Assembly: GCA_947589705.1 (NCBI GenBank)
Contig: CANQCO010000012.1
Coordinates: 1-32,568 of the forward strand
Direction of reading: 5' to 3'
DNA from: Candidatus Gastranaerophilales bacterium
Lineage (GTDB): Bacteria; Cyanobacteriota; Vampirovibrionia; Gastranaerophilales; Gastranaerophilaceae
Length of the DNA stretch: 32,568 nt
The position numbers and the translations under genes were made by a program. This document shows positions 5,365 to 28,348 of this stretch, one piece after another (the stretch's first letter is position 1; each line of letters begins with the position of its first letter). Below the pieces are notes generated by a model. The model was not told where the DNA came from, searched no databases, and saw nothing but the letters and a program-made list of their open reading frames with translations.

Positions 5365-5590
5365 GCCCTGCGCAATTCCGCTTCTTGAAATTCCTTTTCG
5401 CTCAAGCTTGTTACTCCTGCGGCTTTGCCTGTCGTCATTTCAGCTTTCGCATAACAGATTTCATCCGTACGGAATTTCGCCTCTTGGAATTGCTGTTCGC
5501 ACAACCCCTGCAACCTCGCTTTAAAAACCTTTGGTTTTTCCGCTCGGTCGGGTTGTTGCTCCCTCGGGCTCGCTCGCTTTGCTCGGCTTT
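5365..5590 (-). repeat. 227-bp-class GC-rich tandem repeat, copy 1
   Basis: Near-identical to 5591..5817: gccctgcgcaattccgct(g)tcttgaaattccttttcgctcaagcttgt...ctcgctcgctttgctcggcttt. Confidence 0.95.
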
Positions 5591-5817
5591 GCCCTGCGCA
5601 ATTCCGCTGTCTTGAAATTCCTTTTCGCTCAAGCTTGTCACTCCTACGGCTTTGCCTGTCGTCGTTTCAGCTTTCGCATAACGGATTTCATCCGTACGGA
5701 ATTTCGCCTCTTGGAATTGCTGTTCACACAACCCCTGCAACCTCGCTTTAAAAACCTTTGGTTTTTCCGCTCGGTCGGGTTGTTGCTCCCTCGGGCTCGC
5801 TCGCTTTGCTCGGCTTT
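5591..5817 (-). repeat. 227-bp-class GC-rich tandem repeat, copy 2 (third partial copy 5818..5835 abuts the dnaK stop)
   Basis: Differs from copy 1 by only a handful of substitutions and one indel; partial copy ctctgcgcaattccgct runs into the dnaK stop codon. Confidence 0.95.
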
Positions 5818-5833
5818 GCTCTGCGCAATTCCG

Positions 5834-7693
<1,860 letters not shown>

Positions 7694-7802: not shown

Positions 7803-8582
7803 ATGAAAAAAATATTTAAAATTTTATTAACTGTTTTAATAACTTTTGGTGTTTTTATCAGCTTTGATATGTTATTTTTTTATCATATTGTAAATGAGAA
7901 TAAAAAAGTTAGGAAATCTGTTGAAAAATGGGTGACTACATATGGCATTCCTTCTTATTTTATCAAATTAAAATCTTTAAAAGAATCTTACGAAAAAGAA
8001 TTATTGGATTTAAGACCTGTTATGAATCCTGACAGCAAAATGGATTCAATTATAATTTTCGGTTGTTCATATGCTTACGGTTATGTTTTTCCTAATGAAC
8101 AAACTATATCTTATGTGATGTCAAAATATTCTAAAAGACCTATATACAATAGAGCCATAAATGGTTGGGGTATTCAGCATGTAATTTATCAATTGAGAGA
8201 TGAAAATTTTTATAAAGAAATCAAAACAAGACCTAAATATATATTTTATGTATTAATGGGTAATAGTGGGCATTTTAGAAGATTATATTATACTTGTTTC
8301 CCGAATATAGATGATATTAATTATTATTTCGGATTTAAAAATCGAAATGGTAAATTAGAAGAAAGAAAACCTTTCTTAAATTTATATTATAATTTTGCTA
8401 TTTTTAGACATATACAAAATAAGTTAATTGATAGATATGTAGATATAAATTTTTGGGAAAAACCAAATAAAAAACTTTTTGATTTTTTTATACTTCATTT
8501 TAAAACTATAAATGAACTCTTAAAAACCTTATGGGGGGGGGGTAGATGGAAATACTCCTCAATTAATAATATTAACTTTTGA
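7803..8582 (+). pseudogene. Membrane-anchored SGNH-hydrolase-like protein, frame interrupted at a 10-G tract (OFF state or pseudogene; frame resumes to 8781)
   Basis: N-terminal TM; GDSL-like block IIIFGCSYAYGY; closely similar to the intact paralogue at 8809..9789. The missing C-terminus (GNTPQLIILTFENN...EISSHPNGKLWEELIPKLKKIYPDL) is encoded in the +1 frame up to the TAA at 8779..8781. Confidence 0.85.
8533..8542 (+). repeat. Homopolymeric tract (G)10 inside the coding region
   Basis: Direct read: accttatGGGGGGGGGGtagatgg; 9 Gs would restore a 325-aa frame. Confidence 0.9.
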
Positions 8583-8808
8583 AAACAATCAAAATGAATA
8601 CTGGGTTTCAGAACTTGAAAAAGAAGGTATAAAAGTTATTGATATTGCAGATACAATTGGTATACATAATTTAGATGATTTAAAAAAAGGTTTTTTTGAA
8701 CCTGAAATTTCTTCTCATCCTAATGGAAAACTTTGGGAGGAATTAATTCCAAAATTAAAGAAAATTTATCCTGATTTATAAAATATTATTTAGTATATAA
8801 TATCAATT

Positions 8809-9789
8809 ATGAAAAAAATATTTAGAATTTTCTTAATTGTTTTAATAACTTTAGCTGTCTTTGTCGGTTTGGATATGTTATTTTTTTATCATATTGCAAA
8901 TGAGAGTAAAAAAGTTGTTAAATCTATTGAAAAATATAAATCGGTTAAAAAAATTCCCTCTTATTTTATCAAATTAAGACCTATAAAAGACTATTATCAG
9001 GAAAATTTAAAAAATTTAAGACCTGTTATGAATCCTGACAGTAAAATGGATTCAATTATAATTTTCGGTTGTTCTTATGCTTACGGTTATGTTTTTCCTA
9101 ATGAACAAACTATATCCTATGTGATGTCAAAATATTCTAAAAGACCTATATATAATAGGGCTATTAATAGTACGGGCATTCAGCATGTAATTTACCAATT
9201 AAGAGATGAAAATATATATAAAGCGGTTAAAACAAAACCTAAATACGTATTTTATGTACTCATGGATTATACGGGTCATTTTGAAAGATTATATTATACA
9301 AGTATGCCGTCTATAATAGATAACAACTATTACTTTACATACAAACAAAAAGGTAATGAACTTGTTGAAAGAAAACCGTTTTTAAATTTATACTATAATT
9401 TTGCAATAATAAGACATATACAAAATAAACTTATACTAAATTGGGTTAATTATAATTATTGGACAAAGTCTAATAAAAAATTATTTAACTTTTTTATACT
9501 CCATTTTAAAACTATTAATAAATTAATAAAATCTAATTGGGGTGAGTCAGAAGATAGCGAATTTCCTAAATTAATAATTTTGACTTTTGAACATACAAAA
9601 AAGTATATGTGGGAAAATGAACTTAAAAAAGAAGGAATTGATGTTATTGATATAGCGGATACAATAGGAGTCCATGAGTTATATAAATTATCAAAAGGAT
9701 ATTTTGAACCTGAAGTTTCTCCTCATCCTAACGGAAAGGTTTGGGAAGAATTAATTCCTGAGTTGAAGAAAATATATCCTGATTTATAA
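8809..9789 (+). CDS. Membrane-anchored SGNH-hydrolase-like protein, intact paralogue
   Basis: N-terminal TM; FGCSYAYGYVFPNEQTISYVMSKYSKRPIYNRAIN block identical to the first copy; C-terminal EVSPHPNGKVWEELIPELKKIYPDL resembling a block-V His motif. Confidence 0.75.
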   Translation: MKKIFRIFLIVLITLAVFVGLDMLFFYHIANESKKVVKSIEKYKSVKKIPSYFIKLRPIKDYYQENLKNLRPVMNPDSKMDSIIIFGCSYAYGYVFPNEQTISYVMSKYSKRPIYNRAINSTGIQHVIYQLRDENIYKAVKTKPKYVFYVLMDYTGHFERLYYTSMPSIIDNNYYFTYKQKGNELVERKPFLNLYYNFAIIRHIQNKLILNWVNYNYWTKSNKKLFNFFILHFKTINKLIKSNWGESEDSEFPKLIILTFEHTKKYMWENELKKEGIDVIDIADTIGVHELYKLSKGYFEPEVSPHPNGKVWEELIPELKKIYPDL

Positions 9790-9797
9790 TAATTATT

Positions 9798-10475
9798 ATG
9801 AATATAATAAGCGAACTAAAAAATGAAGTAATAATATCAGTGCAGGCAATGAAGGGGGAACCTTTATATGATGAAATTGCTATGACTGCTATGATGAAAT
9901 CCGTTATAAATGGTGGAGCTAAAGCTTTAAGACTGGCAGGCGCAAGAGATGTCAAAAATGCAAAAAAACTTTTTAATGTTCCAGTAATAGGACTCACTAA
10001 GCCTGATAAACTCCCTGATAACTGGCTTGATGTTGTTTATATTACTCCTTCTTTAAAAGAAGTTGATGAACTTATTTCAGCCGGAGCTGATATTATAGCG
10101 ACGGATGCTACTAAAAGACAAAGACCAAAAGAGTCTTTAGAAGAAATTGTTAAATATGTTCACGATAATAACAGGCTTATAATGGCTGATATTTCTAATT
10201 TTGACGAAGGACTAAACGCACAAAACCTCGGATTTGATATTATTTCAACAACACTTTCCGGTTATACAAAATATACCGAAACATCGAGTACAAAACCTGA
10301 TTTTGAGCTTCTTGATAAACTTGTTAAAAACTTAAATACCCCGATAGTTTTAGAAGGCAGAATTTGGAATCCTAAAGAAGTGGATAGAGCATTTGAGCTT
10401 GGTGCACATTGCGTTGTTATAGGCTCTGCCGTTACAAGACCTCAGTTAATTACTAAAAGATTTATAGAAAGATAA
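9798..10475 (+). CDS. nanE: N-acylglucosamine-6-phosphate 2-epimerase (NanE)
   Basis: VIISVQAMKGEPLYDEIAMTAMMKSVINGGAKALRLAGARDVKNAK..., ADIIATDATKRQRP, ALGAHCVVIGSAVTRPQ-type C-terminus. Confidence 0.93.
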   Translation: MNIISELKNEVIISVQAMKGEPLYDEIAMTAMMKSVINGGAKALRLAGARDVKNAKKLFNVPVIGLTKPDKLPDNWLDVVYITPSLKEVDELISAGADIIATDATKRQRPKESLEEIVKYVHDNNRLIMADISNFDEGLNAQNLGFDIISTTLSGYTKYTETSSTKPDFELLDKLVKNLNTPIVLEGRIWNPKEVDRAFELGAHCVVIGSAVTRPQLITKRFIER

Positions 10476-10477
10476 TT

Positions 10478-11398
10478 ATGGCAAAAATTTTATCAATAGA
10501 TGTAGGCGGAACTAAGCTTTCATATTGCATTATTAACGAAAAAGGCGAAATAATAAGTAAAATTGAAAAAACTTCTACACCTAAAAATATTGAAGATATG
10601 AAAAAAATTTTTCATAAAATAATCTCATCATACGAAAAAGATGTTGATTTTATAGCATTTGCAACGGCAGGCGCCGTTAATCTTTCAAATACAAAAGTTG
10701 AATCTTCTACTCCTAATCTGCCGGAAGGGTATAATTCCATTGATTTTTCTTTGTTAAGTAAAAAACATGTTTATGTTGAAAATGACGCAAACGCTGCTGC
10801 GTGGGCTGAATATAAAACAGGGGCAGCAATAGGTGATAATAATACTATTATTATTACTTTAGGTACAGGTATCGGAGGCGGATTTATTATTGACGGTAAA
10901 ATGCTCAGAGGTAAATCGGGAAGAGGTGGTGAAGTCGGCAGTATGAAGATTAATTCTAAAGGAAGAATATGTACTTGCCGTAGAAAGGACTGCTGGGAAA
11001 GCTACGCCTCAGGTACAGGCTTAAAAACTTCTGCAGTTGAACTTGCTTTATCTGATGATATCTTTAAAACAAGTATTTTTAAAGATAAAACCCCTGATGA
11101 AATTACTACTTATGATATTATTGAAGGGATTAAGAAAAATGATTCTTATAGTAAAAAAGTTTTTGAAATATGGAAAAATGATTTAATTACGGGATTAATA
11201 GGTTTGACAAATATATTTGATCCTGAAAGTATCGTAATTTCAGGTGGTATGGGTCAATTTATTAATACATCAGAAATAGAAGAAAAAATTAATTCTGAAA
11301 TTGTTGTTTCGCCTGTTAAAATTAAACTCGCCAAAGCTGGTAATCTCGCAGGCATGATTGGTGCTGCTCTTTTGGCTTTTCAAAAATTTAGTGTATAA
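10478..11398 (+). CDS. ROK-family sugar kinase (N-acetylmannosamine kinase-like)
   Basis: SIDVGGTKLSYCII, ENDANAAAWAE, ITLGTGIGGGFIIDGK, CTCRRKDCWESYASG zinc motif; 2 nt after nanE. Confidence 0.88.
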   Translation: MAKILSIDVGGTKLSYCIINEKGEIISKIEKTSTPKNIEDMKKIFHKIISSYEKDVDFIAFATAGAVNLSNTKVESSTPNLPEGYNSIDFSLLSKKHVYVENDANAAAWAEYKTGAAIGDNNTIIITLGTGIGGGFIIDGKMLRGKSGRGGEVGSMKINSKGRICTCRRKDCWESYASGTGLKTSAVELALSDDIFKTSIFKDKTPDEITTYDIIEGIKKNDSYSKKVFEIWKNDLITGLIGLTNIFDPESIVISGGMGQFINTSEIEEKINSEIVVSPVKIKLAKAGNLAGMIGAALLAFQKFSV

Positions 11399-26020: not shown

Positions 26021-28348
26021 ATGGCAGATTCTGTAAATAATAATGGCGTAGAAAACGGTTATAAATATAATAATCCGGAAATATCAAAATTTGATATTGA
26101 TAAAGACAATCAGATTTCTGTATTTGATGTTGATCAAATAACTGATGAAAATTCTAAATCAGAATTAGCTGGTTTACTTGAAAAAGATATGTCCGAACAA
26201 TTTAATGATGAAATAACCGAAGAAAAAATACAATCACTTGAAGGTAAATTATCGGATGCAAAAAATAATCAAGGTATGGTAGGTTCATTATGGAATGGTA
26301 TAAAAAATATAACAGGACTTGGTTCTAGTACAAAGAAGTGTGAACTAGCTCTTGAAGATTATAAAAACGGAAAAATCAGTTATGATGAAGCAGAAAGTAT
26401 AATTTCAGGATTTGAATCAAAACAGGAAAGTTCTGTAAATCTTGCTGCAAATATATTAACAGGTGTAGCCGCGACTCTGGTAGTCAGCTCAGCCGTATTT
26501 ACAGGCGGACTGTCGCTGGGTTTAATAGCAGGAGCTGCTGTAGTCGGGGCAGGAACAAAGGCAGGACTTAAATTTTTAGATAGAGCCACAAATAAAGTAA
26601 AAGGTGATGCTGTAGATGCCAAACAAATAGTTAAAGATTCACTTTCAGGTGCCGTAGATGGTGCGGTTTCTGTTGCAACAATGGGTATGGGAACGGCTGC
26701 TGTTACGAGTAAAACTGTAGCAGAACAGACTTTAAAAGAAACCGTAAAACAAGGAATAATTTCAGGTGCACAAGCAGGTGCGGTTTCAGGTGCAGTAACA
26801 GGTGCAAGTGACTATACTATTGAAGCTGCTTTAGAAGAAGATGTTGAATTTAATGCAGCTGATTTAGCTAAAAGTACATTAATGAATGCGGCAGGCGGTG
26901 CTGTAGCAGGCGGTATTATGGGCGGAGTTTCGTCTGGAATTCAATATAATAAGTTTGCGAAATCAGTATCCTCACAATCTTCTGCAAATGACATAGCAGA
27001 AATACCTATAGATAGTCCTGATGGTGCAGTTTCTCCTGTAAAAGATATGACGGAAGTACACGCAGATAGCCCTGATAGTGCAGCTTCTCCAGTAAAAGAT
27101 ATGGCGGAAGTACACGCAGATAGTCCTGATAGTACAGTTTCTCCAGTAAAAGATATGGCGGAAGTACACGCAGATAGTCCTGATGCTACAGTTTCTCCTG
27201 TGGATGATAAAACTGTAGTTAACACAGATGCTGAAGTGCCGGTACATATTCAAGAAGAATTGGCTGACAATACTCATAGAATGCATGAAATGTATCAAGA
27301 ACATATAGATGAAGCTGAAAAACAAATTAAAAGAACATTTTCCGATATTGATGGTAGTGAAGTTACGGCAAGACCGAAAAGTGAAGATTCTATTATGTGT
27401 AAATTAATAAAAAAATATAGTAAAGACAGTCTTAAATCAACTTCTCTTGATGAATGTCTTGAAGCAATAGGGGATGCTTATGGTACAAGAATTCAGATTA
27501 AAAGTATTAGTCCCGAAGAATCAAGAGAAATTATTGAAAGTTGTTTACATGGTTACGATATAACTTATGAACAATTTATAAGATTTTTGGATGGTGATAC
27601 ATCCACTTTAGATGAAACAACAATTGCTGCAATAAATGAAATTAAAAGTACAGTTATTGATTCATTGAAAGAGCGTCAAACCCAAGAAGTTGTTGATAAA
27701 CTTGTTAAAGCTATTCGTAGTGTTGATAGTAAAAATGAATTACTGTTTCCTATTACTGAATTAAATAATTATGGTGATGAAATATCTTCATATTTTACAG
27801 CAAGGCAATTGCAGGAGATAGCTGATGCGTATAACCAGGTAACACATCAAAGACTTAAAATAGTTTCCTTAGATAGTTTTCAGGATGCCGCTGGAGAGAA
27901 AATTTCAATAGGGGATAAGATTTCAATAGGGAACAAGATTGAGTTAGATACTACAAAAGCTATTAAAGAATCAGGATATGCTTCTTCTCAGATTAATGTC
28001 AAACATAAATTTTCTGATGGTACAATTGGTAATGGTGAGTTTCAAATAAGAGGTAAAGTGCTTAATGAATTTGCTGATGCGGAACATATTCCTTATGATA
28101 TTAGATCAGGTAAAATTACAGCTTCTGATAAAACATACTCTGATATTTATAGTATAATAGAAAGTATGTCTGATTCTACTTACGAAGCATATAATGAGTT
28201 TTTAACCAGGACATATCAATATTTAAGACTAAAAGAACTTGGTATTGAAATTACTCCTCCTGTATTTAATGATCCATCACTTTCAGAAGAAGCACTAAGA
28301 TTGTTAAGTCCCGAAGGTTTGATAGAAATAAGTGCAAGAAAACACTGA
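26021..28348 (+). CDS. 775-aa protein: N-terminal EF-hand/dockerin-like motif, glycine-rich hydrophobic centre, 18-aa tandem repeats, C-terminal RelA/SpoT-like synthetase domain (candidate toxin/effector)
   Basis: FDIDKDNQISVFDVDQI; AANILTGVAATLVVSSAVFTGGLSLGLIAGAAVVGAG; C-terminal TARPKSEDSIMCKL...GDAYGTRIQI...SGYASSQINV...GEFQIRGKVLNEFADAEHIPYDIR, matching Rel synthetase motifs in order. Confidence 0.75.
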   Translation: MADSVNNNGVENGYKYNNPEISKFDIDKDNQISVFDVDQITDENSKSELAGLLEKDMSEQFNDEITEEKIQSLEGKLSDAKNNQGMVGSLWNGIKNITGLGSSTKKCELALEDYKNGKISYDEAESIISGFESKQESSVNLAANILTGVAATLVVSSAVFTGGLSLGLIAGAAVVGAGTKAGLKFLDRATNKVKGDAVDAKQIVKDSLSGAVDGAVSVATMGMGTAAVTSKTVAEQTLKETVKQGIISGAQAGAVSGAVTGASDYTIEAALEEDVEFNAADLAKSTLMNAAGGAVAGGIMGGVSSGIQYNKFAKSVSSQSSANDIAEIPIDSPDGAVSPVKDMTEVHADSPDSAASPVKDMAEVHADSPDSTVSPVKDMAEVHADSPDATVSPVDDKTVVNTDAEVPVHIQEELADNTHRMHEMYQEHIDEAEKQIKRTFSDIDGSEVTARPKSEDSIMCKLIKKYSKDSLKSTSLDECLEAIGDAYGTRIQIKSISPEESREIIESCLHGYDITYEQFIRFLDGDTSTLDETTIAAINEIKSTVIDSLKERQTQEVVDKLVKAIRSVDSKNELLFPITELNNYGDEISSYFTARQLQEIADAYNQVTHQRLKIVSLDSFQDAAGEKISIGDKISIGNKIELDTTKAIKESGYASSQINVKHKFSDGTIGNGEFQIRGKVLNEFADAEHIPYDIRSGKITASDKTYSDIYSIIESMSDSTYEAYNEFLTRTYQYLRLKELGIEITPPVFNDPSLSEEALRLLSPEGLIEISARKH
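27011..27226 (+). repeat. Four 54-bp tandem repeats (18-aa DSPDxxxSPVKDMxEVHA)
   Basis: gatag(t/c)cctgat starts at 27011, 27065, 27119 and 27173, exactly 54 bp apart. Confidence 0.93.

What the first reader, a model, noticed from the sequence alone, without database searches (positions are those of the whole stretch)
8533..8542. (G)10 tract frameshifts a SGNH-like surface/membrane enzyme: candidate phase-variable switch
In this AT-rich context a run of ten Gs is striking. With 10 Gs the frame stops at 8582, losing the C-terminal segment that holds the putative block-V His motif (SHPNGK). With 9 (or 12) Gs the frame reads to 8781 and matches the intact paralogue, which has only GGGG at this position. 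Homopolymer contingency loci in surface-glycan genes are established in other bacteria. The link to glycan modification here is inferred.
Basis: partly seen in the sequence, partly recalled or inferred. Interest (0 to 1): 0.72.

Follow-up and report, generated by a model that had tools for sequence, protein, structure and literature searches.

The report
Poly-G on/off switch in gut cyanobacterium
A run of ten Gs inside a probable sugar-modifying surface enzyme gene of an uncultured gut relative of cyanobacteria is very likely a slippery on/off switch, one of 22 such tracts in its genome; the switch type is well known from gut and throat pathogens, but I found no earlier report of it in this group.

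Summary
A G10 tract lies at 8533-8542, the only G run longer than 5 in a 32% GC window. Reading from the ATG at 7803, 10 Gs give a 259-aa product stopping at 8582; 9 or 12 Gs open the frame to 8781. The neighbouring paralogue (8809-9789) has GGGG there.

The genome (Gastranaerophilales, non-photosynthetic Cyanobacteriota) holds 22 tracts of G>=10, against 0.04-0.18 expected. They lie in glycan, surface and restriction-modification genes or promoter spacers, with in-frame and out-of-frame states mixed. Downstream of the tract the window gene is under purifying selection (dN/dS 0.16-0.40, as upstream), so it is not a decaying pseudogene. Other members of the enzyme family carry tracts at other positions. 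In a congener, 94%-identical duplicates differ by one base in the tract, one in frame and one out.

Best reading: a slipped-strand contingency locus, OFF in this assembly, in an SGNH-like enzyme upstream of nanE-nanK. Length heterogeneity at this locus was not seen directly (no reads). Mechanism known; lineage apparently unreported. Separately, sister genera carry fixed-length poly-G tracts in prepilin leaders, nearly always in one out-of-frame phase: a stranger, independent observation.

The parts
8533..8542 (+). G10 tract (candidate contingency tract)
   Evidence: expected 0.0006-0.003 such runs per window
7803..8582 (+). SGNH-like membrane-anchored gene A as assembled: 259 aa, truncated (OFF)
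8545..8781 (+). Rest of gene A in the alternate frame: 78 codons plus stop, homologous to the paralogue, dN/dS 0.16-0.40
8061..8069 (+). Block-I-like GCS motif of gene A (residues 87-89)
   Evidence: alignment A1, G87 and S89 invariant; sequence
8716..8724 (+). HPN motif (block-V-like His) lost in the OFF state
8809..9789 (+). Intact paralogue B, 326 aa, with only GGGG (9539-9542) at the tract position
9798..10475 (+). nanE-like N-acetylmannosamine-6-phosphate 2-epimerase, 8 bp after B
   Evidence: PF04131 4.9e-60; NF002231 263.7 bits over cut-off 189
10478..11398 (+). ROK-family sugar kinase (nanK-like), same apparent operon
   Evidence: PF00480 8.7e-57; N-acetylmannosamine kinase models hit below cut-off
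5834..7675 (-). dnaK, divergent neighbour that anchors the locus in related genomes
   Evidence: 98-99.7% aa identity next to the orthologous locus in three related genomes

Best explanation
The G10 tract is a slipped-strand (simple-sequence-repeat) contingency locus. DNA polymerase slippage adds or removes single Gs. When the length is a multiple of three (9, 12), the gene encodes a full-length membrane-anchored SGNH-like enzyme of about 325 aa; at 10 or 11 Gs translation stops just after the tract and the C-terminal part with the HPN motif is lost, so the enzyme should be inactive. The assembled cell population is OFF at the consensus level. Because the intact paralogue B follows in the same apparent operon, switching would change the dose or the specificity of a surface or host-glycan O-acyl modification, not abolish it. 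Shown: the tract, the frames, the selection on the downstream part, the genome-wide context. Inferred: that length varies in the population, that the enzyme is an O-acyl transferase or esterase, and that its substrate is an amino sugar or surface glycan.
For: Tract and frame logic. 22 G>=10 tracts in the genome against 0.04-0.18 expected, A>=10 not enriched. Tract genes are of classical contingency type: MmeI-type restriction-modification enzyme, glycosyltransferases, CDP-glucose 4,6-dehydratase, a tract directly 5' of rfbH, acyltransferase 3, a second SGNH-like gene. Mixed states: 5 in frame and 7 out in G000, 10 in and 8 out in congener G078. Promoter-spacer tracts in a conserved element TTGCxxC-G(8-11)-TAAAAGTGG-TATAAT in G000 and G078. 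Downstream part under selection: dN/dS 0.16-0.40 against 0.23-0.37 upstream, no stop in 78 codons; P(no stop under neutral drift) 0.02-0.09 for branch lengths 0.35-0.2. SGNH-like relatives carry tracts at other positions: L026 (G10, in frame), L047 (G8), L059 (C9). Tandem duplicates in G078 with 94% identical flanks differ C9/C10, in frame/out of frame. The CDP-glucose dehydratase tract is at the same place in two species with about 79% identical flanks.
Against: No reads and no second genome of the same species, so length variation at this very tract is not shown. The tract copy (gene A) was found in this genome only; relatives with the syntenic locus show no tract in their copy. Most tracts in G000 have exactly n=10. 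MutS1 is intact in the genus, so slippage may be slower than in species without mismatch repair. The MAG has 5.6% estimated contamination, though this locus is syntenic with a rabbit-gut Gastranaerophilales MAG.
Confidence: 0.8

Rival explanations
1. Assembly or sequencing error: the true length is 9 (or 12) and the gene is simply intact.
For: One base decides the frame; homopolymers are error-prone, although Illumina indel errors rise mainly above about 14 bp (PMC8808543).
Against: Even at n=9 the tract would be a long G run far beyond chance and prone to slip. 22 tracts and mixed frames in the same assembly, with similar tracts in independently assembled congeners, make a one-off error unimportant for the interpretation.
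Confidence: 0.1
2. Decaying pseudogene: gene A is a redundant tandem duplicate of B that was broken by tract growth.
For: An intact paralogue lies next to it; only this genome has the extra tract copy.
Against: 78 downstream codons remain open and under purifying selection at the same level as the upstream part (dN/dS 0.16-0.40); the tract lies exactly where the frame changes and there is no second lesion.
Confidence: 0.1
3. Programmed slippage: the full-length protein is made from n=10 DNA by transcriptional slippage or ribosomal frameshifting on the G run, without DNA length change.
For: In sister genera poly-G tracts of near-constant length precede prepilin motifs in one constant out-of-frame phase (14/15 and 4/4 in g7, 8/8 in g10), hard to explain by random switching.
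Against: In the window's own genus lengths vary 8-13 and states are mixed in and out of frame; none of the 31 tracts sampled in G078 precedes a prepilin motif.
Confidence: 0.08
4. The truncated 259-aa form is itself a functional product (C-terminal sequence switching rather than ON/OFF).
For: C-terminal sequence switching by homopolymer tracts is described in Helicobacter canadensis (PMC2823697, title and abstract).
Against: The lost part holds the conserved HPN...W region; n=10 and n=11 give short unrelated tails of 15 and 3 residues.
Confidence: 0.05

Closest known systems
Poly-G contingency loci of Campylobacter (phasome; PMC6321876)
   Same: Poly-G, mainly in ORFs with G on the coding strand, length peak 9-10, ON/OFF by frame.
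   Different: Different phylum; here MutS1 is present, and a conserved promoter-spacer tract family coexists with the intragenic tracts.
Phase-variable Type IIG R-M gene cj0031c of C. jejuni (PMC4889913)
   Same: L010 in this genome is a single-chain MmeI-type R-M gene with an internal G13 tract.
   Different: Recognition site unknown; switching not shown. It is another locus of the same genome, not the window gene.
Promoter-spacer poly-G of Neisseria porA (from own knowledge)
   Same: Poly-G between the -35-like and -10 hexamers, so transcription strength would follow tract length; seen in the TTGCxxC-Gn-TAAAAGTGG-TATAAT elements.
   Different: Not the mechanism at the window locus, which is intragenic; spacers here calculate to 18-21 nt.
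SGNH/GDSL hydrolase and AlgX-like acetyltransferase superfamily
   Same: Block-I-like GxS with invariant G87/S89, conserved HPN near the C terminus; PDB profile match places 4rsh (GDSL lipase) on block I.
   Different: GDS is replaced by GCS; all profile matches are below curated cut-offs; no confident fold.

Membership tests
Poly-G SSR contingency (phase-variable) locus | Homopolymer far longer than chance | tested here: met
   22 observed against 0.04-0.18 expected per genome
Poly-G SSR contingency (phase-variable) locus | Length change switches between full-length and truncated product | tested here: met
   in silico
Poly-G SSR contingency (phase-variable) locus | Alternate-frame remainder kept intact by selection | tested here: met
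   dN/dS 0.16-0.40 downstream, no stops
Poly-G SSR contingency (phase-variable) locus | Tract length varies between cells or strains | tested here: inconclusive
   Not testable at this locus (no reads, no same-species genome); near-identical duplicates in G078 differ by one base
Poly-G SSR contingency (phase-variable) locus | Reversible expression switching | not testable with these tools
   needs reads, culture or a reporter
SGNH/GDSL superfamily | Block I G-x-S nucleophile motif | tested here: met
   G87-C88-S89, G and S invariant in 18 homologues
SGNH/GDSL superfamily | Block V His | tested here: inconclusive
   HPN/HP conserved in most but not all homologues; two members have TPN
SGNH/GDSL superfamily | Profile match above curated cut-off | tested here: not met
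   NF047474 21.7 bits against 300; Lipase_GDSL_2 E=0.004 in 1 of 18; PDB 4rsh E=0.27
SGNH/GDSL superfamily | SGNH alpha/beta fold | tested here: inconclusive
   AlphaFold2 with 1 and 3 sequences: pLDDT 39 and 38
nan (N-acetylmannosamine/sialate) cluster | nanE and nanK-type kinase adjacent | tested here: met
   nanE over cut-off, ROK kinase; nanE also beside the homologue in 5 other genomes

The most novel reading that the evidence does not exclude
Long poly-G tracts are a family-wide gene-expression device in this Gastranaerophilales family with two modes: hypermutable contingency tracts in some genera (the window's) and near-fixed-length tracts in others, where a constant out-of-frame phase before prepilin motifs implies obligatory slippage (transcriptional or ribosomal). 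The window gene might then also be read by slippage.
Probability: 0.12. Interest if true: 0.85.

Novelty: new member of a known kind. Interest (0 to 1): 0.52.

Why it matters
It would extend genome-scale poly-G phase variation to non-photosynthetic Cyanobacteriota of the animal gut, a group with few cultures, and predict that their surface glycans, secreted proteins and a restriction-modification enzyme vary stochastically within one host. That can be tested at once in existing metagenome reads. Full-text searches (5.39 million open papers) gave no paper joining Gastranaerophilales with phase variation and only one, on flagellins, that mentions both Melainabacteria and phase variation.

Tried and rejected
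AlphaFold2 with one or three sequences gave useless models and no fold search was run on them. Pfam gave no family for the SGNH-like protein itself. A viral-contig scan for the promoter element found nothing. I first took family-wide G10 counts as all contingency loci, then rejected that: in genus g7 all 27 tracts sampled in G225 were exactly G10 and the listed ones are strand-biased, so counts from other genera are not used as support for phase variation here.

Full report
Observation. The window contains a single long G run, G10 at 8533-8542, inside a 32% GC sequence whose other G and C runs do not exceed 5. Markov models of order 0-3 trained on the window predict 0.0006-0.003 runs of G>=10 per window and 0.04-0.18 per genome. 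From the ATG at 7803 the tract interrupts the frame: n=10 gives 259 aa, n=11 about 247 aa, n=12 (equally 9) about 325 aa. The paralogue at 8809-9789 is intact and has GGGG there.

Where the window comes from. It is contig 12 of a 2.085 Mb, 133-contig genome. The closest named relative of paralogue B is a rabbit-gut 'Candidatus Gastranaerophilales' MAG, 90% identical at protein level and with the same dnaK / SGNH-like / nanE order.

Genome-wide context. The genome has 22 tracts of G>=10 (10 on one strand, 12 on the other), while A>=10 runs are below expectation. I read the surroundings of all of them. Intragenic tracts lie in an MmeI-type R-M gene, glycosyltransferases, a GT87/PRK-like gene, a pentose-phosphate-epimerase-like gene in a nucleotide-sugar cluster, CDP-glucose 4,6-dehydratase, an acyltransferase 3, a BadF-type ATPase (G9), and a second SGNH-like gene; one tract sits directly before rfbH. 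Others are intergenic. A recurrent element TTGCxxC-G(8-11)-TAAAAGTGG-TATAAT occurs in G000 and in congener G078, often before proteins with a hydrophobic N terminus; a second group has a C tract upstream of AAATTTGATATAAT. These look like promoter-spacer tracts.

State and mutability. Of 12 intragenic tracts (n>=9) in G000, 5 are in frame and 7 out; in G078 10 are in frame and 8 out. In G078 a tandem duplication with 94% identical flanks has C9 (in frame) in one copy and C10 (out of frame) in the other; a second pair differs G10/G9 but with a compensating difference next to the tract, so both are in frame. This is indirect evidence that tracts change length.

The window gene. Downstream of the tract 78 codons are open in the alternate frame and align with the paralogue and with homologues from eight other genomes. 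dN/dS there is 0.16-0.40, the same range as upstream (0.23-0.37). Under neutral drift the chance of no stop in 78 codons is 0.09 at branch length 0.2 and 0.02 at 0.35. Part of the upstream region is nearly identical between A and B (98% in one 60-nt block), which suggests gene conversion and would lower upstream divergence. Three further family members, one in this genome and two in congeners, carry long G or C tracts at other positions, so tracts have arisen repeatedly in this gene family, which has 3-23 homologues in most genomes of the genus.

What the protein is. It has an N-terminal hydrophobic helix, an invariant GxS (GCS) and a C-terminal HPN in most members. Profile evidence for SGNH is weak but falls on the right place: NCBIfam GDSL_LA_2486 E=9.9e-5, far below cut-off; PDB 4rsh (GDSL lipase) E=0.27 aligned on block I; Lipase_GDSL_2 in one member. 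It precedes nanE and a ROK kinase with 8- and 2-bp gaps after paralogue B; nanE also lies beside the homologue in five other genomes. A role in O-acyl modification of amino sugars or surface glycans is therefore plausible, and inferred.

Verdict. The best explanation is a poly-G contingency locus, OFF in the assembly (0.8). It works like the poly-G loci of Campylobacter (PMC6321876). Membership by direct length variation and reversible expression could not be tested. MutS1 is present in all 21 genomes of the genus examined, so switching rates may be lower than in species without mismatch repair.

A separate oddity. In sister genera, poly-G tracts lie between a ribosome-binding site plus ATG and a prepilin motif (FTLAEVLVTLGI, FTMAEILLSLTI). 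In G225 (g7) all 27 sampled tracts are exactly G10 and 14 of 15 prepilin genes with a recognisable start have the same +2 phase, so the frame from the ATG stops after about 15 residues; G120 (g7) 4/4; G009 (g10) 8/8 with mostly G13 and +1 phase; G123 (g11) 4/5. In g39 phases are mixed, and g23 (two cases) has one of each of two phases. In G225 the listed tracts are strongly strand-biased along contigs. Random switching does not predict this; programmed slippage or a silent-cassette system might. It is not part of the window and is reported as a lead.

Noticed in passing
L070-L089 (G225), L108-L116 (G123), L117-L126 (G009), L153-L157 (G120): Sister genera carry poly-G of near-constant length (G10, G11 or G13 by genus) between ATG and a prepilin motif, nearly always in the same out-of-frame phase (14/15, 4/5, 8/8, 4/4). 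Suggests programmed slippage or silent cassettes rather than random phase variation.
   Followed up: partly
G225 contigs C1-C4: The G10 tracts are strongly strand-biased along contigs (C1 45/45 on the minus strand; C3 flips between about 123 and 163 kb), as if tied to replication direction.
   Followed up: no
L024, L027, L039, L060-L069, L104, L105: Conserved promoter-like element TTGCxxC-G(8-11)-TAAAAGTGG-TATAAT in G000 and G078, not found in 145 other sampled genomes of the family.
   Followed up: partly
L010:2627-5437: MmeI-type single-chain restriction-modification gene with an in-frame G13 tract in the methyltransferase domain: candidate phase-variable methylation.
   Followed up: partly
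window 5365-5835: 227-bp tandem repeat, 2.1 copies, 97% identical, directly downstream of dnaK.
   Followed up: no
window 27010-27198: 54-bp in-frame tandem repeat (3.5 copies, DSPDSTVSPVKDMAEVHA) inside a 775-aa protein.
   Followed up: no
G221 and G211 (same phylum, other families): Two other Cyanobacteriota genomes also have many G>=10 tracts (46 and 33), unlike most of the phylum sample outside the window's family.
   Followed up: no
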